A stretch of 64,000 nucleotides of DNA from assembly GCA_026770025.1 (NCBI GenBank), contig JAMXDE010000068.1:62001-126000 (forward strand). Direction: 5' to 3'. Origin of the DNA: Craspedostauros australis. Taxonomy: Eukaryota; Bacillariophyta; Bacillariophyceae; Mastogloiales; Achnanthaceae. The position numbers were made by a program, and so were the translations under genes. Below are positions 9,793 to 39,931 of this stretch, in pieces (within the stretch, counting starts at the first letter, position 1; every line of letters starts with the position of its first letter). The notes below the pieces were generated by a model. The model searched no databases and was not told the origin of the DNA. It saw only the letters and a program-made list of their open reading frames with translations.

Positions 9793-9984
9793 TGCATTTA
9801 ATGCACTTCAAATGCATTTTTTGCACTCCAAATGCATTTAATGCACTCCAATTGCATTTTTTGAACCCCGAATGCATTTAATGCACTCCATTTGCATTTA
9901 ATGCACTCCAATTGCATTTAATGCACTTCAAATGCATTTTTTGAACCCCAAATGCATTAAATGCACTCCAAATGCATTTTTTGC
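9793..9984. repeat. Right subterminal array of element A
   Basis: About ten 20-bp units of the same TGCATTTAATGCAC family as at 7771-7960. Several carry TGCATTTTTTG cores. Together with the left array this makes element A roughly symmetrical. Confidence 0.9.
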
Positions 9985-10227
9985 AAAAGGAAGCAGGTTC
10001 GACGGGACTCGATGACGCTTCAACAACACGGATGCAATGACTGAATATGTCCGAGTAACACCGACTGATAAAGTTTTCATATCAATGAGTCAAACGAAGA
10101 CGTCGCTGCGACATTCGCTTTGTCAACATCTCACAAACAACGAAGAAACACAACAAATGACAAAAAGCACTTTCGAGTCGTACTAGTCGTAAACTGAAGT
10201 ATTCGATGCACTTGCCGGGTGTCCCGG

Positions 10228-13776: not shown

Positions 13777-14136
13777 GGGCTTCCGGTAAAACGGACTATC
13801 GGACTAACGAACAGCATCTCTATTTGGTTAACGGATAATGTTAGTCGTGAATGCGAAATGCTTAGTCCTGGTTGGAATGTCGTACTTGGAATTTATGGTT
13901 TTATCAATCCGTGATTGAATTATCTCTAGCCAACAGCGAAAAAGATGCCCTATTTAGAGCACGTTTTGAAAAGATTCCCTATGAGCCGCCTTAGTGAGTC
14001 GACCTGCACTTTGTTACGGGACTCAAGAACATTTTTTCAGTAGATCCAAACCAAGCATATAATCGTATTCTCCCACCTCTCCTTATAAATAATTAACCAT
14101 TACATTTTTGAGATAGATCCTATTTTAAGTTTTATG
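13777..14136. repeat. Left terminal inverted repeat of transposon D
   Basis: About 360 bp. The inner 170 bp (from GTGAGTCGACCTGCACTTTG to the TAAGTTTTATG end) match the complement of 31,291-31,507 with few differences. The outer half matches the right end of D2 closely but the right end of D only loosely. Confidence 0.8.
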
Positions 14137-14640
14137 CATATTCAAAGGTTTTCTGAAGTCGTATGGGTCGATCCCCATGAAATTCCTAGTTGTTTCGCAG
14201 AAAGTTCGATCATGTTCTCATGCATTTATCGTATGGTATCCAGTCACGGAATAGACGCCGGGATTGTCGTTCGTTTGGTACGCGTGAAATACACGTTAGC
14301 ATCTGCGACATGATCTCACATTTTGCTCGTCACAAAACACATCACACAAAACACATCACACAAAACACATCACACATCATCGGCATCTGTTCACAAATTC
14401 AGGCATCATCGCCACACTTTCGCTCCATTTCGCAACTTTCTTTGCCAATGTCATGTGTACTCTTTGTTGTGTTCCATGCTTGTGCTCGCCCTAGTAGTGT
14501 AGTAGTAGTAATAGTTGCTGTGGCTGTCAATGAATGGTGGCCTTTCATCCCATGCTCTCCTCTCCTCACTTCGTCTCAGACCTGTGCAGATCATCACATC
14601 CGACCAAATAGCAACTACACTCTCCACCAACAATTCCACC
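14137..14640 (+). promoter_or_regulatory. Leader region of the D transposase gene
   Basis: Between the TIR and the start codon. It includes three copies of a 14-bp CACAAAACACATCA unit at about 14,333-14,376. No gene is seen. By position it should hold the transposase promoter, but no specific element is recognised. Confidence 0.4.
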
Positions 14641-17600
14641 ATGTTTCCCTCTGCTGCTGCCAAGGCCCTTTCCAAGGATGGCAACCCCTCCCCCAGTAAG
14701 AAACCACGTTCTCTTTACCCTGTATCTCCTCCCTTCGATTCGAAGGGGTTCCTGCTGCCAACTGCGGAGCAACTGTTGCCTGACAAGCCCTCTGCTACGT
14801 TGAGGAAGCCGAGCATCATCACGCAAGTGATTGATGTGAAGCCGATGCTCGCAGCAGAGGGCAGCCTCGTCCCGAACAGTACGCATGCGCACGCTCGCGA
14901 GCTGCATGTGTACGTTCACATCCTCGACAACAACGGAGGCGTCTTCGACGACTCCAATGTCAGGGTGCGTTCGGAGGGACGAGGTGTCGGCGATTGTACG
15001 TCGGTGAGCGTTATCGTGAACGCGCCACCCCCGCCTGCTGCAGCTGATGTTGCACCACCTGTCGAGCCTGCCCCACCGGCGAGGCTCCCTCGTCGCTGCA
15101 ATGCTGTTGTTGCTGGTGTCTACGCAGACACCTCCAACGACAGCGACACCACCTACGACGACAACGACAGGGGTGAACGAACGCGCGCCAGCAGGAACAG
15201 GAGAGGAGGTCAGTTCGGGTTTGATCCGGAAGAGGCGGGAAACTGGAGGCGCGATGCCATTGTTCGTGTCATGGCAGTGCTTGGATCTAACCTAGATCCT
15301 GAACTGTTGTACCACATGCCCAAAACAGGATTCGTTCTTGACAGCAACGGTGATAGGACAACATGGTGGAACTTGACACGCGTGTGGGTCACTGTGGCTA
15401 CTGCACTCTGGGGTGTCTTGCTCCCTCAGGAGGAGTTGCCAACTCGTCAGATGAAACAGGTGGTGGGGTTTGTCCGCGCTCGCGTGGACCTGCCGCCGCC
15501 TGCACTCGGTTCAAATCTGTACACCCTGTGTGTGAGGGGGGAAAAGACAATTGCTAACGTGGCGAGAGCCGTTCTCGCTGCATCTACTTCATGCAACAAC
15601 GTCACTGCAATCCTGTCTCGTCATGTGGAAATCATGCCAGAGGAACAACGTGTTCGTGTCGCACCCGCACGCGCCACTAACACTAGGAGTCAACTAACAA
15701 CGTTGCGACGCGCCTTCGACATATTCAGCTGTGGCGGGATCATTCCGCCCAAGGTTCTACAGTATCGTGTGCGTGCTTGCAATCTGTCTGGTGTGACGTC
15801 GTTTCTCATGACCACCACTACGTACAAGGCAGGGTTGAGTCACACGGTACAGTTTGGAGGTGTCAAATTTGAAAATGTCCCCGTGTTCGATCGCGGAAGC
15901 ACGACCATCGAACAACTATTCGGCATGTACTCATCCACGACCAACAACCCAGTGGGAATGCCCGTTTTCACCCTCATCACTAACCTACTCACACGCAAAA
16001 GCAAGATCAAGACGGGCCTCTCTTCCTTCGAAAGCTACTTCTGGATGGCGACGGAGAAACTCAAACAGGCGATTTCGCGCCTAGTAGACCTACTGAAGGC
16101 TAAGTATGAAACAGACGGGGAGGAACAAAACGATGCCAATGACGAGAGCGACAACCACAACGACGAGCCAGATGACGTCATCGCGCCACATGTGCGCACA
16201 GCCGATTCCCTCTTGCATGCACTCGAACTGCTTGTTGTGTTCCTCAAATGGGAATTCACCGCCTCCCACATGCAGCTTCAGTGTGACGATCCCATGCATT
16301 CGGCTGCGTTCGCACTCATCACAGGAAAGGAGAAGAAGGCAACAACCACATCAACCAATCAACGCAAACCACGCACCAACAAGCACAAGCGCAAGAAGAC
16401 CGCCACCATCACAAATGACACTCCAACCATCACAATTGACATTCCTCCCACCACCTCAACCGAACAACCGTGTAAAGTATGCAACCGTTGTGGATCAGCA
16501 ATGCGATTTGTGAATGATCGTTTCGTTCCTTTTGTCACAATGCTTAAGGACAACGAACTCGCAGAACACAAGGACGAATTGCAATCAATGCTCGCGGCGG
16601 CACCGGGATTCGCCAACGAAATTGTTAACTACATGGCTCACAAAGTGCGTGCCAAAGTGCAATTCCGACAAATCGCTTTTTATCAATCTGAGCTCAATGA
16701 TAAGCCTGAAAGAGCCTATGTGGTACTCGACCATAAGCAAAAAATTCTACCAACAGGCCAAGGCGAAGCCCAACAAGAATATTGGGGGAAGAAGGGGATG
16801 TCACTGCTCGGGGCAATGGTCATCACGTGTCGCAACGACATTTTTACTTATCGGTTCATTGACATTGTGGTCGATGGAAGACCGACACAAGACACACTTC
16901 AAGTTGGTGGACTGCTGGAGATCGTGCAAAAAAAGGTCAAAGACATTCATCCATCCGTGACTGAAATCATCCTACAGAGCGATAACGCGTGTTGCTTCGC
17001 CAGTCACGAGCACATCGCGCTCATCACGTCCAAACTCAACAAGAACCTTGCGACACGAAACGTGGCCAAAATCATCCTGTGGATCTACACGGAGGCCCAA
17101 ACCGGTAAGAGCATGCTGGACACCCACTTCGCGTACATCACCCGTGTACTGCGAAAATACGTGCAAAGTGGCAAGGACATCAAGACCCCTTTCCAAGTCT
17201 TCCTCGCGCTCCAAGCCGGCAGCATCGCAGGGACGACCACGGTACTTGCCAATGCAGAGGCCCTCCAAGGCAACATCACGACGCTTCCTGGCGCACCAAA
17301 AAGACGATTCTGCGCGAATGGGCAACAGGTACGTCAAACTCACGAGGTGAAGTATGATGATGACCAGGCGCGGTTGGTGGCTGCATCTGGTATCACGGAA
17401 GAAGTCGTGGTCAAGAGCACCGAATGGGAAGGCTGGAGCATCAACAAGTTGGGTGTCGTCCCTGCCCATTCGCACACGTCCGACAAGCTGCCAATCACGT
17501 CCGAATCGTCCAGGAAAACGGACAAGACGCGCAAAATGGGGCGCACAGCAACAGAGAGCAAGGCGTTCGCGATTGGCAAAGCCCTCCAAGACGGACAACA

Positions 17601-17910
17601 ACATCTACCATCCGATCACACCACAGCACTACAAGACCAGACCGCGGAAACCGAACACCCACCACTCGCAGGGACACCCGGCAAGTGCATCAAATACTTC
17701 AGTTTACGACTAGTACGACTCAAAAGTGGTTTTTGTCGTTTGTTGTGTTTCTTCGTTGTTTGTGAGATGTTGACAAAGCAAATGTTGCAGCGACGTCTTC
17801 GTTTGACTCATTGATATTACTACTTTATCAGTCGGTGTTACTCGGACAAATTTAGTCATTGCTTCCGTTCGGTTGAAGTGTCATCGAGTCCCGTCGAACC
17901 TGCTTCCTTT

Positions 17911-18064
17911 TGCATTTAATGCATTTGGAGTGCATTTAATGCACTTGGGGTTCAAAAAATGCATTTGAAGTGCATTAAATGCAAATGGAGTGCATTAAAT
18001 GCAATCGGGGTGCATTAAATGCATTTGGGGTTCAAAAAATGCATTTGAAGTGCATTAAATGCAC
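17911..18064. repeat. Subterminal array of element B (left in window orientation)
   Basis: About eight 20-bp units of the TGCATTTAATGCAC family, complementary in orientation to the right array of element A. Confidence 0.9.
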
Positions 18065-18314
18065 TTGATCGGTTTTGCTGTCCACAATTCGTGAATGGAT
18101 CCTCCTGGCGTCAACTCGCCACATCCAACCACTGGGCGCAAAACTGGTGGTTGCATGAGCCAGACGTACTGTTTGCGAACGGAAGGTGGCCGTGGCGATG
18201 AAGAACAATTCTCCTGCTGCCAATTCAGTGGTTCTTGCAAGCCCCATGCTGCGTACCATCGTGTTTTCTGTAAGCCCCATGCTGGGTACCGTCATGTTTT
18301 CCTGAATATAGCGA

Positions 18315-19611
18315 ATCGGACAACACTACTTTCTTAGCAAACGATGTAACGTGTTGTCAAATAGGGTAATACATATTTAGCTAGTGTCTACGACACAAAT
18401 ACTGGCTGGCTTGTCCTCAACGCGGACAAAAGGCATGACGTCATTGACGGTCGATGACAGACCGAAATTGTATTCAATGGTGTGGATGGTGATGTCGTGA
18501 CAGGTCCAGTGCCATGTCGGTTGCTCACGCTGTTGGTGATTTGGCTCCTTTGGGTGTTTCCTCCTGCCAATGTTGTGTCAAGCAGCAAAGCATTGGTGGT
18601 GTCATCCCTACATGTCGGCCACACCAGCCACACGTGTGAATGCTACACAACATAATATTATGTAATGTAATGGAGGGCAGTGACTTATCCTTTGCTATGC
18701 ACAACAAAATACAATACTAAATAATACTTGGCTTAGTTTGTGAATGTTCTACAAAGTCCTGCACAACCTACTTTGTTCCCCTTGGACATGGGACACCATA
18801 ATCATCTGCTGAGCTGTTGACATGGTGCAGAAAGAGACTGGTGACAGTAGTGTTGTCATCCTTGTTGTTTCTTGCATCGTGATTCAAGTGCTTGTGGATT
18901 CAATACCACTGAAACAAGAAGTAAAGAGGGGGAGCAGATGAGCAACGGTTCAAAGCCAATGATGGCCATTGGCGACAACGAGCAGAGAGGAGGTCCAAAC
19001 ACACAGGCAGGGAATAGACCTGAAGCAAGGACGAGGCTGTACTATAGAGTAGGTATATGGAGGGAAGGAAGTGTGTGCTGATTGATATGTGGACAAAGCT
19101 GAACGTCCTGGACCATGAACAGCAGCGGACCGAGAACAAGGCATGATGCAGCTTGAGTTAAGGGTGAGGGCAAAGGTTGAATTGGGGTGTACCATCCTTG
19201 GGTAGCATGGAGCCTGCAACCTGCTCACCACCATATGTATTCTTCTCCACATGGGTTCCATTGATCCAAAGCCCAGACAAAGCAGCAGCCTTGGCATGCC
19301 CACTGCCACCACGCAATCCTCAACATGTTGTTACAAGTAACCGCCTCACCCACGTGAAATGTGAGTGTGTCGATGATAGACATGACTGGTCAGCACGTCA
19401 AAACACGACTGACGATTCCCAACCCCATTTGCCCTCCACCGTCCGCACGCTGGACGCGTTTAGGCAAAGGCTAATGCGAAAAAATAACTTTGTAACTATA
19501 CGGCTGAGGAGTCTATAACTTCACGCAAATACCCAATACAGCATAATAGGATGAATTCAGTGCTGAAATAATGTATCAGAACGAAGTTTCAATCGTATCC
19601 TGAATGGGTCT
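18315..19611 (-). mobile_element. Element-C-related segment inside element B
   Basis: Complement of the segment at 8258-9541 in element A, ending in TCCTGAATGGGTCT at 19,611. Like A's copy it lacks the LINE-2 insertion and C's last ~45 bp. Confidence 0.7.
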
Positions 19612-19903
19612 TATGCTCACGCTGGGTCCACACAGCAAACAACTCGAGTCTGTTGTCCATTTGGTATTGGAGAATCACACACAGAGCCTCGAATGGGTGC
19701 ACATGGCACTGGTGGCCATGGCGAACAGTGTCGCTCATGGTCTTCAGGTTCTTGATTCGGCAGTTCAAACGCTCGGCAACGAGCGCGGCTCTTGAACTTT
19801 GCACCATCTTTTCGCGAACAATCCTGTCCTCGGGGCCTGCACACCAATCGCCAACCCACACACAAACAGCTCAAGCGAGTCCCGCGACCTGTGTGCTTCC
19901 ACC

Positions 19904-20054
19904 AAAAAATGCATTTGGTGTGCAAAAAATGCATTTGCAGTGCATTAAATGCACTTGGAGTTCAAAAAATGCACTTGAAGTGCATTAAATGCAAATGGAG
20001 TGCATTAAATGCAAATGCAGTGCATTAAATGCATTTGGAGTGCATTAAATGCAC
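19904..20054. repeat. Subterminal array of element B (right in window orientation)
   Basis: About seven to eight 20-bp units, including TGCAAAAAATGCA forms. Counterpart of the left array of element A. Confidence 0.9.
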
Positions 20055-20805
20055 TTTCAGTTGTGCATCAGATTGATTCGTGACTTAAACAACTACAGTC
20101 ACAACGGCGGTCATTGGACACCAGTATACGATCTCGTTAAATAGAATACTTAACGACACGACATTCACCGGTCATTTTCAGCGAATGCAACGACACAGAT
20201 TGTGGAGGCAAGACTAATTCGATTAAACAGCCTCGATTCATCTCCATGGTCAAGTGAGTCAAACGACGAACATTTCAATGGACTTGCCGGGTGTCCCAGT
20301 GCCAGGTTGGGCAAGCAAAACAACACGGACCAACACCAAACTACCAGACTACATCGCGGACAAGTTGAAGGACATCTGTGAAGCGTCCGCGAAGGACCCA
20401 AAAAACAGGCCATCGGAGCACGAAGCACACGAGAAACTGATGAACAACGCAAGAACCAAAACTGACTGGTACGTGCAACTGCACGCAAATCCCATGCGTG
20501 TCAAATCGTCGCTGTTTGCGGCGTACAGTGCCAAACAACGCAAAGAAAAGAAGGAGGCTGCCCTCATCAAGACAGAAACCACCACAACACCGACCACCAC
20601 CACCAACACAACAAGCACAGCAACAGCATCTGTAATCGTGGTGGCCCCCAATGCGCCAGCTGCAACAGAGGAGGAACGAATCGAAGAGGAGTTGCAGAGA
20701 GAGGAAGAGGAATTGGAGAATCAGAGGTGGTGTGATGCTCACACAGTGAAGGCGAATGCAGAAAGTGAGGCTGTGTTGGATGATGATGGCACGAAAATTT
20801 TGTGA

Positions 20806-22538
20806 GGGGTGTGCATCACCGCGATAGCACGAGTTGTGGAGTTTTGTGGGTGCCCGGCCAGGCTACTACAACGAGTCTAGATGCCATCCAAAAACACATC
20901 CAAATATCGGCTTGTCATGCTATATCTCAACAACAAACTGCTTAAAATCAAAACTAAGCATTGCATTCGTACACATGACTATCGGTTTATCAGAATATTG
21001 AAGTTAAATGAGTATAGAAAATATTTTGGAAGTCATGTTGGTTTGCGGTGTTTTGTGTGGTGGATTCGGAAAAAATTGTTGATGCCACAATGTTGCCCTC
21101 CAATGAGCACACATGATCATCATCATCATCCTTGTATTTCAGCAAACTGTGCATACCATTCGCTCTGCATACCTCCCAGCTATCCGCTCCATGAAGCATG
21201 GACACAGATATCGGCTCTGCATGCAGCAATGCATCCACACACCGAAACAGATCGTTTTCGAAAAATCAGTTTCAATGTGGATGCAGTTTAGATATGGATC
21301 CGTATCTCGTCCATACGATCCTTTAACCCCCTCCAAGCGCTCCTCGTGCATTCCCACACTCCATGGCGACACGCAGCTGCATCCAGAATGGGCTGGGAGT
21401 GCATGGCCAACGTGATGCACCTCCACAAGATGATGTGGTGGTGCATTTGTTGCTCCCACCAACAACGACCATTCTGCAGATATGGTCAGCTGCAGTCTCT
21501 TCCAGACAACTTGAGCAGAGCATACTTCACGACGTGCATCTTCAATGGATGCCGCACGCATCTTGTATGGGTGGCTTGGTGATTGAGGGGTGTCTTCCCA
21601 CCGCCCCTCACAGCCAAAGCCACGCGACTGGTGCCAGGCGAGCCCCAACCAAAACTCTTGAAAACCACCTTTGCCTCTGCGCGGACACCTTCCCGGTGCT
21701 CCGCGACCCTCAAACTTCGAGGGTGCCTTCATCTTGGCCTCCTCGAGGCATCTTGCCCATCCGTAGGCGCTGATATGGCCTGTGTGTGCCACACATCGGC
21801 CAAAACCAACCAGCCGATTTGGGGCCAAATTGTGATCGTATTTCTGGGGCCTACGACGGCCCCAAATCAACCCCTCTTCCCGCCTCCGTTCGTCCACCCA
21901 CCAAACGTTGCGTGGAGGTGACGGCGATGTGCTTGGATCTTGAATTGGCCGGCTGGTTGTTGCGGCGCCAAGCATACCGTTCGACGGCCATTGTGGTTTT
22001 TTTTTGGCGTTGCTCCACTTCCATGTCGGTGTGTCGAGTTTGCCACTCTCAACCAGCCTCACATGTTGGGGGAAGTGGAGATTTACCTCCAATGGTACCA
22101 ACGGTCCAACAAAACACACAACACAAAACACTCGAGGAGTACCAACCCCACTCAACCACTTCGCCACGACGAAGCAGACCTGATGACGTTGCGCATCGTG
22201 ATATCATTGGTGTTTCATGACGAAGTATCCAATTTCGTGACGTCGATGACGGATTGGACAAGCACATGGTATAAGTAACGTAAACGAGTGTTCACTGCTG
22301 TCAGGAATCGGGTGTTCTGAAACACCATATTGCCGCACTTCCCAAGAGTAAGGAACCGAACGTTGGGATATTCTACATTACCGCAACTCCCACCTTTGGA
22401 TCTTTATGACAGAGAAATGTGAGCTGCACGTGTTCCGGTGATGGAGAACGACACGTGCGGAATGCGAACCATGCCTTGACGATTCATGACTCCAATGCAG
22501 GAATGCGAATCACACGTGTATGTCGCAGGGGGCAGGGA
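20806..22538. other. Interior of transposon D downstream of the transposase gene
   Basis: No supported gene. A minus-strand frame at 21,139-22,167 is open for 342 codons, but it is Trp/Arg/Gly-rich without motifs and overlaps competing open frames, so I do not call it. An 11-bp inverted repeat, GATTTGGGGCC/GGCCCCAAATC, spans about 21,818-21,867 and could form a hairpin. Copia-1 begins at 22,545 after its TGTTGG flank. Confidence 0.5.
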
Positions 22539-22544
22539 TGTTGG

Positions 22545-23343
22545 TGTCGAGATGTACATGTGAGTATATGTCAAGATGTACGTGTATATGTGCATCGTTC
22601 ACCCGTTATTCTCTCATACGCACTTGGACGGTATAACTATACTCGTGTCGATAGTATACTGTGATTCGTCAGAATTACAGGGGAAATGGAACACACGAAA
22701 AGGGGCAAGATTTCTGGAGGAAATTTGCAAATAACGATTTCTGAGAGAATCAGAAGATCGTCCGTCCATGCATCAATGGTACCAAGAGAATCTCGAGGTA
22801 CTTCCCAACTAAACCTCAGATGACGATATCATCTGACAGACTACTGCATCACCAATGGAACGTGACATCTGGAGAGCAGAAGGACGCCTACTGACGTCGA
22901 CAGGATGTCAACATGTCACCACGTCGACAGCTGTCTCCAAGTCAGAGCAGGAGGCGAAGATACGATGACCCATGAAGATCATGGATACTGAAGGTGAACT
23001 TCAAATGGTAAGTACTCATGGAGTAGAAGTCAGTACTGAATGAACGGAGTGTCGAATGCGGAGCACGCATCGAACACGGAGTATCGTGTAGCACGAGCAC
23101 ACGATGGTGAGAAAGAGAGAGAGAGAGAGAATACAGAGAGGAGCGAGAGAGAGGATCTCGCGTACCGACTCATAGTCGGAGACCGAATCTACAAAACAGA
23201 TTGAAGCGCCGAGAGCATCGGGCAAGAGAACGAACGGACACCGAGAGTATCGGAGTACCAACGTAATGAAATAGCAAACAGACGACTATCAACCAATACC
23301 ATCTTCCACGATCGTAGGTTACCGTGAGCGGAACTTGCCAACA
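22545..23343 (+). repeat. 5' LTR of Copia-1
   Basis: 799 bp, same length as the 3' LTR. Contains an (AG)n run near 23,115-23,130. It is followed at once by the 12-nt palindrome CGTTTATAAACG (23,344-23,355) where a primer-binding site would be expected. Confidence 0.9.
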
Positions 23344-23425
23344 CGTTTATAAACGATAGATCAGGGCAAGCCCGCGAATCGTATCGTGCGAGGAAGACGA
23401 ACATCATTCAAGAGCAGCAGGCTGA

Positions 23426-26400
23426 ATGAGCGAGGAAGAGGAATTGAAAGAGATCCCTCTGTCCAATCCGGCTATCAAGAGAGAAGAAGGTGCGAGTGAG
23501 ACTCCACCACGACAAGAGAAGGAAGCAGCCGCGGCTACTGTCCTATCAGGCGCAGACGCAAGCGCAATCGACGAGACCGAAGAAGAACGGTCTGCAAGAC
23601 AACATCGTAAGGAGAAGAGGATTCTCAAGGCGATCAAGCAAGAGGAGACTGGTGTGACGAAGAGCATTCGCACAGCCAAACAGGGTGGGAAAAGTGAGAC
23701 ACCACCAGGAGGAGAATTTGTGACGAAAACAATCTCCGCGCAACAACAGGCGAAAATCGAAGAAGCGCTAACACAGAAACAGACGGAAATCAAGGGCGCG
23801 AGCGCACCAACAACGAAACAACGAATCAACATGGCGACATCAGCCAACGTGAACAAGCGACGCATCAAGGCGCCGATGTTCAGCGGTGAACAGGAAGACT
23901 ACAGCGCATGGGAGTCCCAAGCGAAGGCATACGCTCGTGCACAGAAGACGAGAGACGTGATGTTGGGCAAGACCAAGGTGCCAACAGTGAGCGAGATCGC
24001 GGCAGCCGCCGATGAAGACAAGGAAGCGATGGAGGAGATCTACGAACTGGGATGCGACTGCTTCAGCGATCTGATCCTCATGATGGATGCAGAGAAAGGA
24101 AAAGGTAAACAGGCCATCCAGTACATCAACCAATGCATCTCCGACGACTACCCCGAAGGAGACGCACACGGAGCGTGGAACGTTCTCGCGGAGAAGTTCC
24201 GACCATCCGATGCGGTGACGAAGATCAAACTCAAGCGCCAATTCAACAACGAAAAGATGAAGAGAGACACGGACCCCGACATCTACATCACGCAACTCGA
24301 GAGTCTACGATCGCGTCTCCACGATGTCAAATACGAGATCTCGGACGAGGAAATGATCATGCAAATCCTCAGCACGGTGAGCAACGAGTACAGAACTCAC
24401 ATCGTGAACTTCCAACACCAACTCACGTTCAATCCGGAACTGGTCACCATCAACACGATCAGAGGAGTACTCCGTACTGCATACGCCACGCACAGAGGGG
24501 GCAAAGCATACGTCGACGACTTCCAAGACAGTAACACGAAGAGCAACGACACTGGCTTCACAAGCACCGGTAACTTCAAGGGTACTTGTCACAACTGTGG
24601 CGTGTATGGCCATAGATCCGCCGATTGCCCAGAACGCAAGAAATCGAACAACAAGAAAAATAACAACAACAACAACAAAATGAACGGAAAGCGCAACAAG
24701 GGAAGCGGCTTCAAGGGCAAATGCAATTACTGCGGCATCTTCGGACATCGTGAGGCTGAGTGCCGAAAGAAGAAGTTCAACGAAAGCAAGAAGAACAACG
24801 AACAAGCCAACGCGGCTACGGAAGGACACGACAAGAGCGGGCACGAGATGGTACTCTCTGCGAAAGACATGCCGCTCTGCATGTTGGTGTCCGACGACTA
24901 CATCGAAGACTCCTTCTTCGATAACTTCGAGTGCGTCGGGAGTGACGACGAAGTGCAGGATGATGAGATCATCCCGGAGTGGCTCAGCGAGGAGCCAATC
25001 ATCCACGAGGTGGATCCAAGACGCGAAGTGAGCTACGAATGCTGCTTCAACGCGCACGATCTGATCGGTTCATATGGCGACGAAGCTGAGATGGACGACG
25101 AGGCCAACGATAGCGACATCGAAGAGGCCATGAGCGATGACGACGACGACGCTGACGAGGACGGCGCAGATGAAGACGACGAGGCGAACCGCGACGAGTT
25201 GCCTCCTCCTCAAGCTGGGAGATACGAGAGAACGGGAACCTTCATCAATCAAGGCGAAACGCGCCGCGCCGCGGCGCCTCCTCCTCTAGCAGCGGGGAAC
25301 AACAGATCGGGCATCTTCGACGAGGATGACAGCGACGAATCCGAGGACGGCAATCATCCAGACGACAGCTTCAATCCAAACGAGCGAGTCGTCTACCCAG
25401 GGAACATCGACTTCCCACCTATTGAGGATCCCAACAGCGTCGATTACCTCCTCCGTCACAGCACCATCCCGAATGCAACAGCAACAGCATTGATAATCCA
25501 AAAGCAGCTCATCTTTGACGCCGTAATGGAAGCGGGGATGCGAGTGTTCCCAGGAACAACACGAGGAGCACTCATGCCAATATGGGTGAACATGATGGGA
25601 TCCATCCTATCCGAGCACTTCGAATCAATCGAAGAGATCCTCGCCAATGCAATCATCATCAACCGCATACTGGAAGGGAACGACTCGGAAACGATCCCAG
25701 AGACGGATCTACATTACATCCTTGGAGGATGTATGCGCGTGCTCTTGCGAGAGCGATCACGCGTCCATCCATACGATCCAGCCACAGGATCTCATCGAAA
25801 CAGTACAATTCCATCGGACTACGCGCAACTACCCGATGACATGGATGACGGAGATCATCATCCTCCATACAACGAAGATGGAGTTCACGAAGACGACGAC
25901 GACGGCAGCTTCGACGACGAGATAGCTGCGGCAGCTGTGGAGCAACTCCACGAGCTGAGCACCAAGTACAAGGACAAGGTCAACAAGGACACCTGGCTCG
26001 CCGATAGCGGAGCTTCGTGTCACATCGTCAACTCAGACGCCGCTCTCTTCAACGTGCGGCATATCAAGTCCTTCGTCCAAGTGGGAGACAGCACGAAGCT
26101 GGACTCTCCCAAGATGGGATCCATTCGCTTGAAAGTCAAACAGCGAGACAACACTGGCCACATCATCCGGCTCGATGATGTGAAGTACACACCCAAGATG
26201 GCGGTGAACCTTTTCTCCACGAACAAGGCTCTGTACAACGGTTACCAGCTTGGTAACAACGGCATTCTGATGGACATCATCAACGGATCCGGAACGAAGA
26301 TCGTGTTCGATCGAGTCTTCCCCACATCCAACGGATTCATCACGGGAGTGCAGATGCATCCCATCATGCCAACAGACGACGACAAGGCTTGCACAGCCAT

Positions 26401-29671: not shown

Positions 29672-29691
29672 CCGAATGCACACAGGAAGGG

Positions 29692-30490
29692 TGTCGAGAT
29701 GTACATGTGAGTATATGTCAAGATGTACGTATATATGTGCATCGTTCACCCGTTATTCTCTCATACGCACTTGGACGGTATAACTATACTCGTGTCGATA
29801 GTATGCTGTGATTCGTCAGAATTACAGGGGAAATGGAACACACGAAAAGGGGCAAGATTTCTGGAGGAAATTTGCAAATAACGATTTCTGAGAGAATCAG
29901 AGGATCGTCCGTCCATGCATCAATGGTACCAAGAGAATCTCGAGGTACTTCCCAACTAAACCTCAGATGACGATATCATCTGACAGACTACTGCATCACC
30001 AATGGAACATGACATCTGGAGAGCAGAAGAACGCCTACTGACGTCGACAGGATGTCAACATGTCACCACGTCGACAGCTGTCTCCAAGTCAGAGCAGGAG
30101 GCGAAGATACAATGACCCATGAAGATCATGGATACTGAAGGTGAACTTCAAATGGTAAGTACTCACGGAGTAGGAACCAGTACTGAATGAACGGAGTGTC
30201 AAATGCGGAGCACGCATCGAACACGGAGTATCGTGTAGCACGAGCACACGATGGTGAGAAAGAGAGAGAGAGAGAGAATACAGAGAGGAGCGAGAGAGAG
30301 GATCTCGCGTACCGACTCATAGTCGGAGACCGAATCTACAAAACAGATTGAAGCGCCGAGAGCATCGGGCAAGAGAACGAACGGACACCGAGAGTATCGG
30401 AGTACCAACGTAATGAAATAGCAAACAGACGACTATCAACCAATACCATCTTCCACGATCGTAGGTTACCGTGAGCGGAACTTGCCAACA
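29692..30490 (+). repeat. 3' LTR of Copia-1
   Basis: 799 bp. About 11 differences from the 5' LTR by eye. Confidence 0.9.
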
Positions 30491-30496
30491 TGTTGG

Positions 30497-31290
30497 AATC
30501 GTGACCAACATCACGATACGAACGACTACGGCCCCCATGTCGCAACCAATGAGAAAAGAGTACTAGAGGAAGGCCAATGTCACGAAGTGTGAGATGGCCT
30601 GTGAACGAACCTGGTATGAGGAACCTCCAGGAAGCCGGTGAAGTGATCGGCGAAGTAAGCGGAGAAACGATAAGCGAAACATCGGAGATGATCGGAGATG
30701 ATCGGAGATGTGTGATGGTCGAGGAGCTGAATGAGCTCCCAACCGAGGTGTTCCCGTGACGAATGGGAGACCGTGATCTGGTTGAATGGACCGACCTGTG
30801 TGATGCCTACGACTCGGCGATGTCTAAGGCATCGAAACTATCAGTGGAGGACAACGTGCTTTTGTGCACGAACATGGGGTACTCGGTGGTGCATGCATGT
30901 CCATGACGAATTTGCAATGAATGCAAGATGAATGCCTGCTAGACCAAGAGAGGGACCCATGGTGATCGCAGGAGGAGATCGAACTTTGAGATTGAGAGCA
31001 ATGAAGAGCTCACAGTTCAGAGAAGTAGATTCTAACAAACGATTAGTTCTCTACTATCATACCACCCCGGATTTCCAACACACCGCTGCCCCCAACATTC
31101 TACAACTAGTGCTATCGTGGATGGACTGTTGGATGGTCTCATCCGAACACCTGAAAAAGAGACTAAACAATTCAAAATCGGAACAACCTTGCTGAAACGA
31201 AGAACAGCAAAGGGTTAAATTGGATCGATGTAGTCGGTAGAAGACGGCCGAGTCCCTAAAGCAGTCTAAAAATGCGCACATTGACGGGTC
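30497..31290. other. Interior of transposon D between Copia-1 and the right TIR
   Basis: No gene seen. It contains GATGATCGGA direct repeats near 30,685-30,710. Assigned to D by position only. Confidence 0.4.
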
Positions 31291-31507
31291 CATAAAACTT
31301 AAAATAGGATCTATCTCAAAAATGTAATGGTTAATTATTTATAAAGAGAGTTAGGAGAATACGAATATGTACGTTGTTTGGATATCTGAGACAAAAGTTC
31401 TGGAGTCCCGTAACAAAGTGCAGGTCGACTCACTAAGTGGGGTCCTATTTACGGCACGTTTTGAAAAGGTGCCCTAATTTAGGGCATGGTTTGAGAACGT
31501 GCCCTAT
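31291..31507. repeat. Inner part of the right TIR of transposon D
   Basis: Complement of the inner part of 13,777-14,136 (TTAATTATTTATAAAGAGAG, CAAAGTGCAGGTCGACTCAC and similar blocks). The TIR is interrupted at 31,508-39,231 by element C and its TAA duplication, then resumes at 39,232. Confidence 0.8.
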
Positions 31508-32521
31508 TAAAGACCCCATTCAGGATACAAAGGTATTATCGTGCCGATTTTTAGTTTGAGGACTTCGTTCATCCTAAAATGTTGTAGATAGTATATGTGT
31601 GAAGTAACAAGCTCCTGATCCTTGTAGTTAAAAAGTTTATATTTTTCGCATTAGTCTATGACTAGACACGTTGGGAATACGGACGTAGACGTGCAATTTT
31701 GTTTGGAAACTCCAGTCGTGCTTCGATTTTGTTATCCAGTCGTGCCTATCAACGACACAATCACATTTCGCGTTGGTGAGGCGGTTGATTTCGAAGAAAT
31801 GTTGAGGATTGCGTGGCAGCGGTAGGCATGCCAAGGATGCTGATTCATCTGGGCCATGGATCAGTTGTCAAAATTCAGAGTTGTGGGTTAGTGGGTAATC
31901 CAGATCTTGACCCCCAGCTTGACTTTCACACTGCCTTGTTCTCGGTTCTGCTACCGTTTATGTTCCGTGACGTTGAGCTTTGTCCATGTCCCAATCAGCA
32001 CACACTGCCTTCCCTCCATATGCCTACTCTTATTGCAGCCTCATCCTCATTTCAGATCTATTCTCTGTTTGTTCCGTTGGACCTCCTCTCTGTTCGTCGT
32101 CGCCAACAGCCATCTCTGGCTGCTGGCTGTTGTTCATCTGCTCTCCTCTCGGCTTGTTATTTTGGTGTCAATGAATCTGGAAGCACACGAATCACAACAC
32201 GAGAAACAACATGGAAAACAACAACACTGCCACCAGTCTCTTTCCGCACCATGCCAACAGCTCAGCAGATGACCTCGGCATCCCCTGTCCAATGGAAGCA
32301 AAGAAGGTTGCACAGGACTTTGTACTCACAAACTAAGCTTAGTGTGAAATAATGCTATATTTTGCATACTAAAGAATGTCCCATGGCTCTTCCACAGTTG
32401 ATGACGTACGTAGGACCAGTATGAAAATTCTCATGTAGAACCTGTAGAATCAGTACTACAACAAAAAATTTGACAATGGTGCGCACAGGCGCAAAAAACG
32501 GCTCTGGCAAAGCCAACCAGA

Positions 32522-34505
32522 GTGCTCGATCGATGCCGACCATGGCACAAGGATGTCCAGGACAAGGAGGCCGAGGTGGCAAGCGACTCTCCAGGCAACA
32601 AGACAACAAAAAAGCAACCCACTGAAAACGAGAACCATTGGACTTGGAGTCATCAGCACGAGAGAAGTTGGGGTGACAACCTCTGCAAGAGGAACCTGAT
32701 GACATGGGACTTGGAACCTTTCCAAGCTGCATCTGGGGAAGAGGGCACATTTGACGAGCCCATTGACTTTGTAAAGGAGATGAGGGACGATCTGGCGGAC
32801 GGAGTATCCTTCGAACAGTGGAAGCAGCTGTTCAGCAACGCGGACGACAACAAACTAACCACAGAATCCAACCTGCTGATGTTGCAAATCATGGTGCAAC
32901 TGTTGGCAACATCCAACATCTTCTCCTCTTCGATGTGGAAATTGGACAGATCCTATCCACACATGTGACAGCTGCATGGATTGCAGCAAGGACGGTATTC
33001 ATGGAGGTCAAGGGCACCCATCTCGACAAAATGAAGATGAAAACGTTCCACAGGCCAACTCTCCAAACCCCACATCCAAAAAGAAGTTGTGCAAGCCAAA
33101 AAAACAAAGTAATGGTGTACCCAAGGAAGAACCCACAAGCTTGAGAACTGGTGAGCATCAATGATGTCCTCAGCAACATCCACAAGAGCTTCTTTGATGT
33201 GTGTCTGCCAATGTCAAGGAACGGCAGTGATACTCTGTTGGTGCAAGTCATCGCAGGATTGAACGCGTTACGCGCATTCATTTTCCGCACTGACTCCAAG
33301 ACAAAAATCCTGGCATGGCGGAGAAGCAAAAAGCTATGACCCTGGATGGCCGCGGACGTTGCATGGACCAGCTGTGAGATGCTGAAGCAATTTGTAGAGA
33401 TTCTCTATGCAAGAACAGAATTCATAACCTACATGTGCATTTGGGTTGGCCACAAACAGGACCTTGACACTTTTGAGGATGATGGAACACTAGTAACAGC
33501 TGCGATGGCTTTCAGGAAGTCTGACATGCAGAAAAACAACATTGTGGCAGCAGGTTGGCTGTTCGGCAGCCACAGCACCATGAATATGGAGGATTTGGCA
33601 GAAGTAATCAATGAGCATGAGGTTGTGAAGAACCAATGCATAGTTCAACTTCACATCCATAAGATTCAACTGGTGAAGAAGAGAGGACAACAATCAGAAT
33701 TGGATGGCTACCACAACTGGCCAAGGGCCACCCACATCATGTGCAGCAAGTCAAAGCCCAGATCCTGCCATGTCGTGATGAAAGACATGGTCAACAACTG
33801 TGCAGACACGGTACTCCTTCTCGGAAAACAGATGAGGTTCATGCTGGACGCTCTTGACCAACAGTTCTATCACCCACGCTTGGAACTCGCGAACTTGAGT
33901 TTGATGGTAGCGCATCAGGTCGCATTCGAAAAGAAAATGGTGACAGAGGGCATGTACTCTATCATGCAGTTGGATGTGGAAGTGCTGATATGAAGACTCA
34001 CTCTGCGCGAGGTCATCATGAATCTTTGGCCTTTCGAAGACCCAGACTACACATTGTTCATGTCAGTGGATACAGACAAGTCCGACCGCAATCGCACCTT
34101 TTTCATCTTCCATCCCAAATGACAGGTGGAAGCGCGGGGACTGATTTCCAAACTACCATTTTGTTTGCAGCAAAAAGCTGGACCATGCTCTTTTTCGAAG
34201 AATACAGCAAACACAACATACACAGACACGTGGAGGAATTGTTGGCAACAGCAAAGGCCCAAGGATGGACCATGACACAAGAGCAGCGCCTCCAGTTCGA
34301 CAAGCTCCTGGAACAAACGAACCAGATCAGGCAGTTTGCAGAGAAAGGGTGCAGCAAGTTGAAAATGGGGGAAGTCGCATGGTCGCCAGAGATACAACGC
34401 TCTCAGGACGTGATTCAACTCTGGTCACTTGAGGTGAAGCATCTCCTGGGTGTGAAAGTGAACTCCTCTCTTCAACAGCAAGCCAGAAAGTGGGTAGGTC
34501 TCTAG
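32522..34505 (+). pseudogene. ORF1-like region of LINE-2
   Basis: Remnants lie in several frames at 32,522-32,968, 33,346-33,993 and 33,990-34,505. The longest is a 215-codon piece (MAADVAWTSCEMLKQF...), followed in another frame by NLWPFEDPDYTLFMSVDTDK and a Gln-rich helical segment. By position this should be the nucleic-acid-binding first ORF. No zinc knuckle is visible and family similarity is weak. The stops between pieces show it cannot make a full protein. Confidence 0.5.
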
Positions 34506-34867
34506 GAAGGCATGAACCTCCAACAAGCACAGCAAATGTGCTCTGAAGCATACAAAGCCTACTAGAAGCAAAATATAGAGCACACGCAAGCAAGGCAAGA
34601 TCACCTGGTGCAGATGGCAAGACAACGGCATGACTCAAACGAACAGGACTACGAAGCTGCTCTACAAATGCTCCTGAACAGGGAGAAGCAGCGAGAGCAA
34701 GCCGGCGGCCTCAGAGCAGCGTTTGGGCAAGGCAAATTGATGACCACCAAAGTTCTGTTAATGGACAACAAGGACAGCTGCATGAATGTAATGAGCAGTA
34801 CAAGATAGTCACAGCATGCATCCAGGAAAACAAGAAGAGGTTCTCCCAGGTCAACAGCGCCCCCTGT

Positions 34868-37800
34868 ATGATCGGCCAGGGCAAGCAACTCATGGACCGT
34901 ATATGGATACCAGAACTTGGACGACAGCTCGTTGAGACGGAGGCACCCATACCAGAGACAATTGACCCCATGATCAGGGTTCTGTTGGAGTCCCTTGAGT
35001 CTATTGTGCAGGACGAGTCGGAACTCACTGTAATGGAGCATTCGAAGGCCTGGAAAAAGCAGATGGAGCTCACCAATTCAGAGCTGAGCTGTCCCCATTT
35101 TGATCATTGCAAGGCTGCTGCAATGGTTCAGGCACTGGCCCACGTGGATACAATGCTGAAGGAGGCACCATACCAGACCGGGCATTCCCCAACACCGTGG
35201 CAACGCGTTACCGATGTGGAAATTCTCAAGAAGGCGCAAGTGTTCAACATTGAAAATTGCGTGCGATACAGCTCATGGACGCACAATTCAACCTGAACAA
35301 CAAGTGGCTTGGCAAGCAGATGATGCAGACGGCGGAGAAGGCCGGCTGGCTATCGGGCTTTCAGTTAGGGAGCCAAAAGCGCAGATCGGCGATGAGTGTT
35401 GCACTGAGCAAGCAGCTCACCATTGTCCTTGGATTCCAACATAAGGTAGCAGTGGTGTTCTGTTCCAATGATGCGAAGTTGTATTCCAACAGGATCATAC
35501 CCAACTGTGTGGCTGCGGCGATGATGGCCGCGGGTGCGAACGGATCGGCTACAAGGAGCATGTTCAAAACCCTACACGATGCCAGACACCACATCAACAC
35601 TGCATATGGAGTGTCCAGCAGGTGCTACAAAAAGGCACTGACTGTGACATGCATGGCATTGGACAAGACAATGGGGCAGGCCCTGCAATCTGGGCTGGTA
35701 TCAGCTCTGTCATGTTTAAGGCCATGACAAGACTGGGCCACATGTTGGCCTTGTCCAGTCTGCTGGGAGAGTTCATACCAGTGCTAGGCTTGGAATTGGT
35801 TGATGATACCGACCTGATCCGACTCGAGCAACGGGAGCACGACGGCGCCGATACCGAAGCCTTGAAACAGACAGTCCAGGATTAGAGCCAACTGCTGCAA
35901 GTTACAGGAGGAGCGCTGGTACCAGAGAAGTCAGCATGGTGGGCCATCCAACCGGAGTTCAACACCAATAAATGGGAACGGTGCGATGCCAAGGCCACCA
36001 CCAATATTCGCATCGACGAAGGACAAGGTACAAGAGCGGAGATCCCCAACAAGACGATGGATCAGCCGCTGTTCACCCTGGGTGTGCTCATTGAGTTTGA
36101 CAGAGACAATGGGGAGCAAGTGAAGCAGTTGTGAAAGAAAGCCGAAGACGTCGGACGAAAGATGCGTACTGCGCAGATCTCCCCAGAGGACGCAAGATCG
36201 GCGCTTACACTGAGACTCATGAAGGCAATTGAGTACGCCTTGCCGCTAGTCCAGCTCACCCAGACGCAGTGGCGATACATCATGGCACCGGCGCTACTAG
36301 TGTCCCTGCCAAAGATGGGCTGCTCGCGAACCCAGCCAAGACATCTGGTGCACAGCACGAAATCCCTTGGAGGATTAGGCATTGTAAGTCCTGCCAATTC
36401 CCAGCTGATGGCTCAGATTCAGCTGGCTTTCGATGAGGTTCATCAGGGGCCCAGACCAGCAAGGTGATCAAGTGCTCGGTGCAAGCGCTCAAGGAGGAGC
36501 TAGGGGTAGGGAGTTCCCTATTCCAATACTTGTATGCTTGGCTTGGACATTGCACATCCAAATTCTGGATTGCTGGTCTGTGGGGTCAACTACAGGGTAC
36601 CGGCATTGAGGTGTGCGAAACAACGACGTCCAGCGAAACGCAGTGTGAAGGTGACTCCTTTCTGATGGATATCTGGATCCGGCAGCAGGTGAAGGGGGCG
36701 CAGCTCTATCACCTGAACATGTGCATCAAAAACTAGGGGTGTTGTGATTGTCAGACATCGTGTCAGTCGAAGGTACCAGGATCTTGTCGGAGGCACACAA
36801 CGGAATACGGGCGTCCATCATACCAAGATGATGGGCGAAGCAACCGCAGAGATTACCAAGTGGTTGGTGGAAGGAGTGGCAACAGTGGTGCAGATTGATA
36901 TGGTACCAAGGTATAACGCTACACCGACCATTGGGCAAGTGGCACTGCGACAACAGGTTGTGGCGATGGTGGAAGGAGCCATATCAAGATGACATCTTGG
37001 ACCTGGCTGCCTCTCCGATTCTATGGTATCGACTGTATCAATGAAGCCAGACCCAAAGGAAGCAGTACACCCAAATTGCGACAGTGGCTGAAGCTCCAGC
37101 GAACGCCAAGAGAGTCTCTGTGGTTTCCACAGAACACGGAATTGAATGGGACAGGCATGTTGGGCTCGCAAAGCCTCCTGACGAGCCCACCGCCGCATAT
37201 GATCCGATTGAAAACCTTGTGGGGGATATGGTGCTCCACCAGGCGACGAGGGCAGCAAACTGCAACAAACTTTTGATGGTGAGCGCCGGGTCGTCCAAAG
37301 ACAGGCAAGCAACATCAGTATTGATTGCGTTTGACGTCAAATCCCAGCAGTACATGTACTGCCAAACGTTCGTTCTGAGGGCCCCAGAAGTTCACAGTGC
37401 CTATGGAAGCGAGTTAACTGGGATATGGGCGTCCCTTGCAATCGTCTCGGAGATTCCAGGCATTCACAAGGACAGTGTGATCACCATTGCCCTGGACGGC
37501 AAGCAGGCACTCTTGCCAGCACAGGAGGACGACTTGCTACCAAGCCAAAAGGACTGGGATGTTCTTACGGAAATCAGGAGGCTCCAATGGCAGATCCTGG
37601 CTTTGCTGAAGTGGAAATGGGTGAAGGGGCACTAAGAAGCCACCGGCAAACAGCTGACGGTGATGGATCAGCTCAACATGGAGGCCAACAAGAAAGCCAA
37701 GCAATTCTGGGAAGAAACCTGTCAGAGGCCCAACGTGCGAACCTGGTCCACTGACACCGGCAGGTGGCGACTCCAGCTTTGCAAAGATGACCACTCACAC

Positions 37801-38729
37801 ATGGACCCAGGTGCGATGAATGAGCTCCTTCAGTCTGCCTTGGCGATGAAGTATTGGTCCTCGAAGTTCCAGTCGGACAGCAACCAGCTGGACCAGGTCG
37901 ATTGGCGCACGGACAATGCGATGCGCCAGTCCAAGCAAAACTGCAGCTTGACCATGTTCATTTTGAAGTGGGCCTCTGGATTCATTGGGGTCAACAAGAA
38001 GTTGCTCCAGACCGGACAGATGTCATTGGCCAAGTGCAAGATCTGCAGGCGCGACGAAACCAACCAGCATGTGTACCAATGCCCAGAACATCACGAGGCA
38101 TGGACGATCGTCACCTCGAACCTAGTGGATCGCATGGCGGAGAGTGGAACATCCCCACGATTGGTAAGGAACATGAGAGTGGGTTTGGTTTGGCGAAATG
38201 GACAAGGAACGTAGGCTCGAATGACACACAAAGTGTCATTGGATGGTACCCACTACTGGTAGGGCTTCTGCACAAGGACTGGGTAAGCCAGCAGGAACAA
38301 TGGATGATGATACACGAGTGCTGATATCCAGACACAAACGCATGGGCTCGGGAAATGGTGCGATGGATACGGAAAGTGCCCTGGGAGGTGTGGATGGCCA
38401 GGAACGCCAAAGTGCATGATGAAGAACAACACCTGGCCACGAGGGACTTGCGTAGGCAGGTACGAAGACTGATACAGGGTGCGAGCCAGAACATGAACAA
38501 ATCGGAGCTACACCTACTCCAAGAAGCCTGCAGTATCAAGTACAGTACAGAGAAACAGATGAAACAGTGGGTGAACTCTATGATAGCCATCCAAGCGGTG
38601 GTGAAAGCGCGGCGACGATTGCGAACAATACAAGCCAAGAGGCGAGCATGGCGTTGTGGCTGGGGATGGCTTGAGAAGGGACACTTGACAGATTGCTCAA
38701 CACATTGCCCCAGGGGGCCGGGGAGGTGA
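34868..38729 (+). pseudogene. Reverse transcriptase-RNase H region of LINE-2
   Basis: Reverse transcriptase blocks include FNLNNKWLGKQMMQTAEKAG (near 35,285), a degraded motif A, NDAKLYSNRI (near 35,468, where intact relatives have NDAKGCYDRI), GIGQDNGAGPAIW (near 35,658) and LVDDTDLI (near 35,797). The RNase H-like part at about 37,084-37,635 has AYGSELTGIWASLA and WKWVKGH, then TAA. A further piece, 37,660-38,214, carries CKICRRDETNQHVYQC, similar to the CPRCGATETHDHLWVC knuckle of LINE-1. The last piece is 38,355-38,729. At least five frame changes or stops separate these, so the gene is dead. Confidence 0.7.
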
Positions 38730-39231
38730 GGGTAAAGCCTTATGGCACATCTACGATGTAATCACTGAGTTATTTATGTATATATTTGCTTTGCATACCA
38801 AAGAAAATTTAGTGTGCTCCATGACATTATATAATATAATTCTGTGTTGTGTGGTATTCGCAAATGTTGCTGTTGCAGCTGACGCGCAGGGGTGCCACCA
38901 CCAACGCTGTGCTGCTTTGCGCAACACGCGCGAAGGAGGAAACACACAACCGAGCCAAATCATCGACAACGTGAGGAATCAACGCGACACCGAAACTGCC
39001 ACAACATCACCATCCACACCATTGAATACAATCGTGGTCTGACATCGACCGTCGTTGACGTCATCATTTTCGTCCACGCTGAAGACAAGTCAGCCAGGTG
39101 TTTGTGTCGTAGAAGCTAGCTAATTAAATATGACCCTAATGAACAATACGCCACATCGTTTGCCAAAAAAGTCATGTTGTCCGATAAAAAATCGGCAGGA
39201 TACTACCTTTTTGTCCTGAATGGGGTCTTAA

Positions 39232-39393
39232 GGGCATCTTTTGACATCACACTGATACGAGTCGCAAGTGGCGACGACAATGTCTGAAGGACACTGCAAC
39301 CAAGACTAATAACATCTCATTCACGACTAATATTGTTCGTGAGCCCGTTAAAATGAACTCGAACCACCATGTCCGGCAGTTTACCGGAAGCCC
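39232..39393. repeat. Outer part of the right TIR of transposon D
   Basis: Continues the TIR beyond element C and ends CCGGAAGCCC at 39,393, followed by CTG. Its outer sequence (ACTGATACGAGTCGCAAGTG, GTCCGGCAGTTTACC) is the complement of the left end of D2. Confidence 0.8.
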
Positions 39394-39529: not shown

Positions 39530-39931
39530 GGGCTTCCGCTAAACTGCCGGACATGCTGGTTCGAGTTCATTTTAACGGGCTTACGAACAATATTAGTCGT
39601 GAACGAGATCTTATTAGTCTTGGTTGCCATGTCCTTCAGACATTGTCGTCGCCACTTGCGACTCGTATCAGTGCGATGTCAACAGATGCACTAAAATAGG
39701 GCACCTATTCAAAACGTGCCTTAAATAGAGCATCTTTTCATAACGTGCCATAAATAGGGCATCTTTGTTCGCTGTAGGCTAGAGACAATTCAATCACGGA
39801 TTGATAAAACCAGAATGTCCTAATACGACATTCCAACCACGACTAAGGAATTCGCATTCACGACTACTATCGTCCGTTAACCAGATGGTGATGCTGTTCG
39901 TTAGTCCAATAGTCCGTTTTACCGGAAGCCC
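39530..39931 (-). mobile_element. D2: 402-bp miniature (MITE-like) derivative of transposon D
   Basis: It starts GGGCTTCCGCTAAACTGCCG (39,530), ends with the complement of GGGCTTCCGGTAAAACGG (39,931), and has CTG on both sides (39,527-39,529; 39,932-39,934). One end matches D's right end and the other D's left end, so D2 is essentially the two ends of D joined, in opposite orientation. It has no coding sequence. It would need D's transposase to move. Confidence 0.8.

What the first reader, a model, noticed from the sequence alone, without database searches (positions are those of the whole stretch)
13777..39393. A DDE transposon with long TIRs and CNG target duplications, possibly an undescribed superfamily
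Seen: opposed ends GGGCTTCCGG with CTG on both sides, inverted repeats of ~360 bp, and between them a gene with a plausible D697-D781-E818 triad and a Cys cluster. D2, A and B independently show 3-bp CNG duplications (CTG, CGG, CAG). I know no standard superfamily defined by a CNG duplication with these ends. Inference: D is the autonomous member.
Basis: partly seen in the sequence, partly recalled or inferred. Interest (0 to 1): 0.75.

Follow-up and report, generated by a model that had tools for sequence, protein, structure and literature searches.

The report
Nested jumping genes in a diatom
What looked like one new kind of jumping gene is a stack of nested ones in a diatom-like alga: the outer ones belong with a known kind, while the gene inside belongs to a separate, very abundant and recently active jumping gene that matched no protein family we could search.

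Summary
D (13777-39393, CTG both sides) is one member of a short non-coding family with 14-bp inverted ends. The transposase-like gene lies in a second element, E (13983-31444), inserted in D's 29-bp repeats: removing E and one CTAT restores a sequence that aligns across the junction to 10 of 10 other D copies. E's left end precedes the gene in 29 of 30 gene loci; D's end is near in 1 of 30, the window. E has ~155-bp inverted repeats and 4-bp NTAN duplications, 19 of 20 paired copies. A capped search scored 150 copies of the core, 114 in open frames of 1150 aa or more; the gene is under purifying selection. Libraries searched gave no transposase match, so E's superfamily is open. The CNG elements A and B carry the 3' end of a DDE_Tnp_4 (PIF/Harbinger, PHIS-type) transposase; intact relatives of that gene lie beside a near-identical right end and CTG in two loci. 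CWG duplications are in print for PHIS group NuwaI (PMC4482050).

The parts
13777..39393 (.). Element D: non-coding CNG-type (probably PHIS) transposon; 14-bp inverted ends GGGCTTCCGGTAAA; CTG at 13774-13776 and 39394-39396; interrupted by E and by a degenerate insertion
39530..39931 (.). Element D2: ~400-bp relative of D, opposite orientation, CTG both sides
13983..31444 (+). Element E: inserted in D; inverted repeats about 13983-14136 and 31291-31444; itself interrupted by B and by a retroelement; five undisturbed copies are 6.03-6.10 kb
13979..13982 (.). CTAT, left copy of E's 4-bp target duplication
31445..31448 (.). CTAT, right copy of E's 4-bp target duplication
14641..17668 (+). E transposase-like gene, N-terminal and catalytic part (D697 16729-16731, D781 16981-16983, E818 17092-17094, D827 17119-17121); interrupted by B
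20300..20805 (+). E transposase-like gene, C-terminal part after B
17672..20296 (-). Element B: CNG-type (PHIS-derived), CAG at 17669-17671 and 20297-20299; inverted relative to A
7528..10224 (+). Element A: CNG-type (PHIS-derived), CGG both sides
8062..8238 (+). Remnant (59 codons, 73% identical) of the 3' end of a DDE_Tnp_4 transposase inside A
19631..19795 (-). Same remnant inside B (55 codons, 71%)
22300..31082 (+). Copia-type retroelement insertion inside E (ORF 23426-29671 with gag, rve and RVT_2 matches); absent from the E copy on C8; limits approximate
32361..38790 (+). Degenerate coding insertion in D, perhaps a retroelement (weak evidence), between near-repeats TTTGCATACTAAAGAA and TTTGCATACCAAAGAA; limits approximate

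Best explanation
The span is a nest. A non-coding CNG-type element (D), moved by a PIF/Harbinger (PHIS)-type transposase made elsewhere, inserted at CTG. Later E, a 6-kb autonomous cut-and-paste transposon of a different and unclassified lineage, inserted at a CTAT in D's internal 29-bp repeats. E was then broken by B (a PHIS-derived CNG element, in the transposase gene) and by a Copia-type retroelement. E most likely works as follows: its ~1180-aa protein binds the ~155-bp inverted repeats, excises the element through an RNase H-like DDE/D active site, and joins the ends to target strands cut 4 bp apart around a central TA, so each insertion is flanked by a repeated NTAN. Shown: the boundaries, inverted repeats, duplications, empty site, gene ownership, selection, and near-identical copies at different sites. 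Inferred: the catalytic fold and triad (D697, D781, and E818 or D827), protein-end binding, cut-and-paste rather than copying, and that D (as opposed to A and B) is moved by a PHIS transposase.
For: Empty site: flanks of E joined without one CTAT align to 10 of 10 other D loci across the junction at position 210; in 7 the alignment runs over 270-276 columns, in 3 it ends 13-15 bases past the junction. Ownership: 29 of 30 gene loci start with E's end, 1 of 30 has D's. Duplication: 19 of 20 paired copies; 11 different NTAN words, central TA in 31 of 31 intact left ends of 32 examined. Inverted repeats of about 147-167 bp in 5 of 5 assembled copies, 6.03-6.10 kb long. dN/dS 0.23-0.31 over 1171-1182 codons in 10 of 10 pairs of these 5 copies; codon-phase bias over the ORF in 3 of 3 pairs tested and none in the 1.8 kb downstream. 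The core search scored 150 of 369 candidates: 150 matches, 149 without a stop, 114 in frames of 1150 aa or more. Copies L036 and L038 are identical at 5197 of 5199 aligned bases but carry CTAG and CTAT. CNG side: DDE_Tnp_4 remnants in A and B; DDE_Tnp_4 genes with right ends identical or one base off, then CTG, in L107 and L105.
Against: No fold was obtained: single-sequence models have mean pLDDT 35.5 and 41.4, and Foldseek gave 0 matches at E<=0.001. So the DDE/D assignment rests on invariant residues in closely related copies plus a predicted order of strands and helices. No excision footprint or transposition was observed. One of 20 E pairs (L005/L062) has a damaged left end, and one gene locus (L035) has no E end within its 1.5-kb flank. 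A second empty site, on C51, gave no hit. The left end of the L105 PHIS element was not found in the 721 bases fetched, and 12 other DDE_Tnp_4 loci showed only matches with 3-4 changes to the D or A ends. No transposase remnant was found in D.
Confidence: 0.9

Rival explanations
1. One reading: D is one autonomous element of a new superfamily defined by CNG duplications, and the DDE-like gene is its transposase.
For: D's ends and CTG flanks enclose the gene; CNG duplications recur.
Against: The gene starts inside E in 29 of 30 loci and is near D's end in 1 of 30; E has its own 4-bp duplications; empty site in D; the ten other D loci fetched are non-coding; A and B carry a different transposase's remnant.
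Confidence: 0.02
2. E is a divergent member of the Sola superfamily (DDD transposase, 4-bp duplications, variable termini, mostly 2-9 kb), not a new superfamily.
For: PMC10741241 (passages) gives for Sola a DDD transposase, 4-bp TSDs, sizes mostly 2-9 kb and TIRs of 11-1124 bp; E has 4-bp duplications, 6 kb and ~155-bp TIRs. D827 is invariant in 12 copies and falls in the helix after the strand that ends at residue 816 in the weak model, so a DDD triad is possible.
Against: No Sola sequence was available to compare. Pfam-A gave no hit at E<=1 for the window protein and no transposase family for 12 members. The DUF7869 search rang neither in this genome nor in the 14 controls, so it is uninformative; its link to Sola is recalled.
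Confidence: 0.25
3. E belongs to some other named eukaryotic superfamily that is poorly covered by Pfam (for example Academ, Novosib, IS3EU, Zisupton), or to a family already deposited in Repbase.
For: Repbase counts 20 superfamilies with a DDD/E transposase (PMC9587614, passages); public Pfam need not cover all.
Against: No credible match in the five libraries searched. Ginger has TG..CA ends and IS481EU has TNT..AYA or TGT..ACA ends, unlike GAGCC/GACCC. Kolobok and piggyBac are described as TTAA-specific, but E takes 11 different words, TTAA not among them.
Confidence: 0.35
4. A, B and D are not PHIS elements but CACTA/EnSpm-like elements with 3-bp duplications and subterminal repeats that captured a DDE_Tnp_4 fragment.
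For: 3-bp duplications, short ends and internal 20- and 29-bp tandem repeats.
Against: DDE_Tnp_4 genes lie upstream of the same kind of right end followed by CTG in L105 and L107; the duplication is CNG in 20 of 20 tallied sites (3 loci left out), close to PHIS NuwaI's CWG.
Confidence: 0.08

Closest known systems
PHIS superfamily (PIF/Harbinger and kin), group NuwaI
   Same: For A, B and probably D: DDE_Tnp_4 transposase remnant or neighbour, 3-bp duplication with C and G outside (CWG in NuwaI; abstract and passages of PMC4482050)
   Different: A/B also use CGG and CCG (4 of 11 sites); the second ORF of L105 has no Pfam hit at E<=0.1, where most NuwaI autonomous candidates are described with a Myb/SANT protein; NuwaI is described as mainly in animals
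Sola superfamily
   Same: E: 4-bp duplication, long TIRs, 6 kb, possible DDD triad (for Sola; for E)
   Different: No sequence similarity shown or testable here; E's target has a central TA in 31 of 31 intact left ends
Kolobok / piggyBac
   Same: 4-bp duplication
   Different: Described as TTAA-specific, while E takes 11 different NTAN words, TTAA not among them
Tc1/mariner
   Same: TA at the target
   Different: 2-bp TA duplication; E's duplication includes the bases on both sides of TA in 19 of 20 paired copies; no Pfam transposase hit

Membership tests
PHIS / PIF-Harbinger (for A and B) | DDE transposase of the DDE_Tnp_4 type in the element or its source | tested here: met
   59- and 55-codon remnants, E 5e-23 and 4e-20; the related gene in L105 hits PF13359 at 1.4e-13
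PHIS / PIF-Harbinger (for A and B) | 3-bp target duplication | tested here: met
   11 of 11 A/B-type sites: 9 fetched pairs plus the window's A and B
PHIS group NuwaI | CWG duplication | tested here: not met
   A/B: CGG or CCG in 4 of 11 sites; D-type: CWG in 9 of 9 tallied, 3 loci left out
PHIS group NuwaI | second ORF with Myb/SANT domain | tested here: inconclusive
   402-aa ORF of L105 has no Pfam hit at E<=0.1; the element's left part was not delimited
PHIS / PIF-Harbinger (for D) | transposase remnant in the element | tested here: inconclusive
   none found in D by tblastn of one PHIS protein; D shares non-coding stretches with A at 78-82%
Sola (for E) | 4-bp duplication | tested here: met
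   19 of 20 paired copies
Sola (for E) | DDD catalytic triad | tested here: inconclusive
   D697, D781, D827 invariant in 12 copies, but E818 is too; models of low confidence
Sola (for E) | transposase sequence similarity | not testable with these tools
   no Sola sequences held; the PF25273 search rang nowhere, controls included
PHIS / PIF-Harbinger (for E) | DDE_Tnp_4-type transposase | tested here: not met
   no Pfam hit of that kind; hhalign of E core (6 rows) with PHIS (3 rows): probability 0.1, E 0.54 (shallow profiles)
Any Pfam-covered transposase family (for E) | hit to a family model | tested here: not met
   no transposase family for 12 of 12 members at E<=1; four unrelated families at E 0.097-0.16 in 2-5 members

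The most novel reading that the evidence does not exclude
E founds a new superfamily of eukaryotic cut-and-paste transposons: a ~1180-aa protein with a Cys cluster and an RNase H-like DDE/D core unlike any modelled transposase, ~155-bp inverted repeats opening GAGCC or GACCC, and strict 4-bp NTAN duplications. It has spread recently to at least 150 copies, most with intact genes.
Probability: 0.3. Interest if true: 0.7.

Novelty: new variant of a known kind. Interest (0 to 1): 0.45.

Why it matters
It removes a false superfamily claim (CNG plus this gene) and replaces it with two testable ones. First, this alga carries PHIS-type elements whose target rule is CNG, broader than the CWG in print for NuwaI. 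Second, a young and mostly intact transposon family has a transposase that the libraries searched could not place. If E proves distinct, it adds to the 20 DDD/E superfamilies counted in Repbase, and its many intact copies would make it a candidate genetic tool for algae.

Tried and rejected
D as an autonomous element: rejected. D's long TIRs: rejected; the repeats pair D with D2. A second gene on E's minus strand (ATG ORFs of up to 404 codons in one copy, shorter in the other four): rejected; frames are not kept between the five copies and there is no codon-phase signal.

Relatives elsewhere: none confirmed in viral contigs (by profile; patterns 39, 41, 42, built partly on a recalled motif) or prokaryote genome contigs. 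These scans need short conserved peptides, so they miss distant relatives. No collection of other eukaryotes was at hand.

Structure: two single-sequence AlphaFold runs gave useless confidence, and Foldseek gave nothing at E<=0.001. I used only the order of predicted strands and helices. A second E empty site on C51 gave no hit.

Papers: search listings 33, 34, 35, 48, 80, 84 and 98 showed no title on an NTAN-duplicating superfamily; only listings were seen. One paper in listing 98 (PMC12222921) holds a word beginning 'ntan' and was not opened. One search found 0 papers holding Harbinger, CNG, transposon and target site duplication as whole words; one search (silicon transporters) found 0. Two central classification papers are not held. 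Of PMC9587614, PMC4455052, PMC10045372, PMC4482050, PMC10741241 and PMC10294476 I saw passages only.
Full report
What was checked. The window lies in a 74.8-Mb genome of 90 contigs. It has 88 matches to the silicon-transporter family PF03842, 32 of them over at least 480 of the model's 513 positions (one of 14 control genomes rings, below the cut-off), so the host is most likely a diatom. Of 100 shuffled windows, 11 reach the same number of one-mismatch hits, so the motif count alone proves nothing; the proof is in the other genomic copies.

D is a real but non-coding family. Ten other places matching D's left 206 bases were fetched, and all carry ends within one change of GGGCTTCCGGTAAA. Seven of them, plus D and D2, have identical 3-bp flanks: five CTG/CTG and four CAG/CAG. 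The other three (L040, L042, L046) share the window's insertion surroundings and do not show a clean duplication; I left them out of the tally. The seven clean copies are 767-883 bp long, and the longest ORF in the ten loci is 135 codons. D's two ends match for 14 bases.

The gene belongs to another element, E. A search with the first 501 bases of D (40 of 347 candidates scored) found two main sets of places, one matching bases 1-206 and the other from about base 200 to the end; in that list only the window matched both in one piece. The second set begins at GAGCC after a TA-containing flank. The long inverted repeat 13980-14136 with 31291-31447 is E's. Undisturbed copies on five contigs are 6.03-6.10 kb with inverted repeats of about 147-167 bp. 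Twenty copies had both ends in hand: in 19 the 4 bases on either side are identical, and one (L005/L062) has a damaged left end. One of the 19 (L016/L061) has a doubled right end, and the outer one matches. Intact left ends (31 of 32 examined) show 11 different words, all NTAN. Thirty gene loci were examined, of the 43 matches listed: 29 have E's end upstream of the gene, 1 (L035) has not within 1.5 kb, and 1 (the window) has D's end.

E was inserted into D. Flanks joined without one CTAT align to 10 of 10 D loci across the junction; seven alignments run over 270-276 columns with 3-4 gap columns, and three end 13-15 bases past the junction. The target was a CCCTATTTA unit of D's 29-bp array. 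E in turn holds B in its gene (CAG at 17669-17671 and 20297-20299) and a Copia-type retroelement at about 22300-31082, absent from the copy on C8.

E's protein. The full ORF is 1175-1182 codons in five assembled copies, and dN/dS is 0.23-0.31 in 10 of 10 pairs. Substitutions concentrate at one codon position over the ORF in 3 of 3 pairs but not in the 1.8 kb after it (in the closest pair, C8/C51, single sub-windows of the ORF are not all significant). A search with 151 residues of the core scored 150 of 369 candidates: the 150 matched at 91% or more, 149 without a stop, and 114 lie in open frames of 1150 aa or more, 28 in frames under 1000. The list was full, so the true number may be larger. 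Three copies at different sites differ at 2-9 of about 5200 aligned bases, gaps apart, and have different duplications, so movement is recent. D697, D781, E818, D827, C614 and C617 are invariant in the 12 aligned copies, but so are many other residues. The weak model places D697 at the end of a strand, D781 just after another, E818 just after a third and D827 in the following helix. By analogy with other RNase H-like transposases (general knowledge), D827 is at least as good a third residue as E818. Library searches: Pfam none at E<=1 for the window protein, one unrelated hit at 0.096 for a piece and four unrelated families at 0.097-0.16 for some members; NCBIfam none; PADLOC none; PHROGs two unknowns at 0.081 and 0.43; PDB sequences nothing better than 0.28.

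The CNG elements A and B are PHIS-type. They are 2.6-2.7-kb copies, without an intact transposase, of a family whose left end has 39 matches in the genome (right end 33). Nine further copies with both ends show CAG, CGG, CTG, CTG, CCG, CTG, CAG, CCG and CTG on both sides. With the window's A and B that is 11 of 11. Both A and B contain the last 55-59 codons of a DDE_Tnp_4 transposase, and one search lists about 15 more such remnants at places next to A-type ends. In L100, a piece of that gene lies inside an A-type right end followed by CGG. L105 and L107 have DDE_Tnp_4 genes (E 1.4e-13 and 5.2e-12) followed by an A-like right end (one base off in L105) and CTG. I did not find the left end of L105 in the extra 721 bases fetched, and twelve other DDE_Tnp_4 loci showed only matches with 3-4 changes to the D or A ends. 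So the link rests on remnants plus right ends. The PHIS paper PMC4482050 (passages) describes NuwaI with CWG duplications; here A/B also use CGG and CCG, so I call them PHIS-type with a CNG rule and do not file them as NuwaI. D shares non-coding stretches with A at 78-82% and its duplication type, but no transposase remnant was found in it; its placement is inferred.

A side observation fits target choice by CNG elements: a different element with the same terminal GGACACCCGGCAA lies at exactly the same CAG of the E gene in another E copy (L025); only its left end was seen.

Verdict. The finding as written joins unlike things. Its CNG part is most likely ordinary PHIS biology with a slightly broader target rule. 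Its transposase part is a different transposon that is unclassified by everything I could search and strikingly abundant and intact.

Noticed in passing
G000 genome (not in window): 32 silicon-transporter matches (PF03842) over at least 480 of 513 model positions, a few with stops; I think this is an unusually large number for a diatom (comparison from recall).
   Followed up: no
window 17669-17671 and L025 around 4525: Two different CNG-type elements sit at exactly the same CAG of the E transposase gene in two E copies, suggesting a target hot spot.
   Followed up: partly
window 11928-13817 (-): Ankyrin-BTB ORF whose 5' end overlaps the left border of D; the D loci L040, L042 and L046 share similar flanks.
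   Followed up: no
window 40182-40481 / 63668-63967 and 44279-44578 / 52068-52367: Two pairs of direct repeats, 300 bases shown at 100% identity, one around a Copia-type ORF (46578-52043, RVT_2) and the other 23.5 kb apart enclosing it: probably nested LTR elements.
   Followed up: no
window 32361-38790: Degenerate coding stretch that may be a retroelement (best Pfam hint zf-RVT, E 0.085, below cut-off, on a possible relative in L100); family not settled.
   Followed up: partly
C4:3215510-3216466: Two E right ends in opposite orientation within 1 kb, possibly a short non-autonomous E derivative.
   Followed up: no
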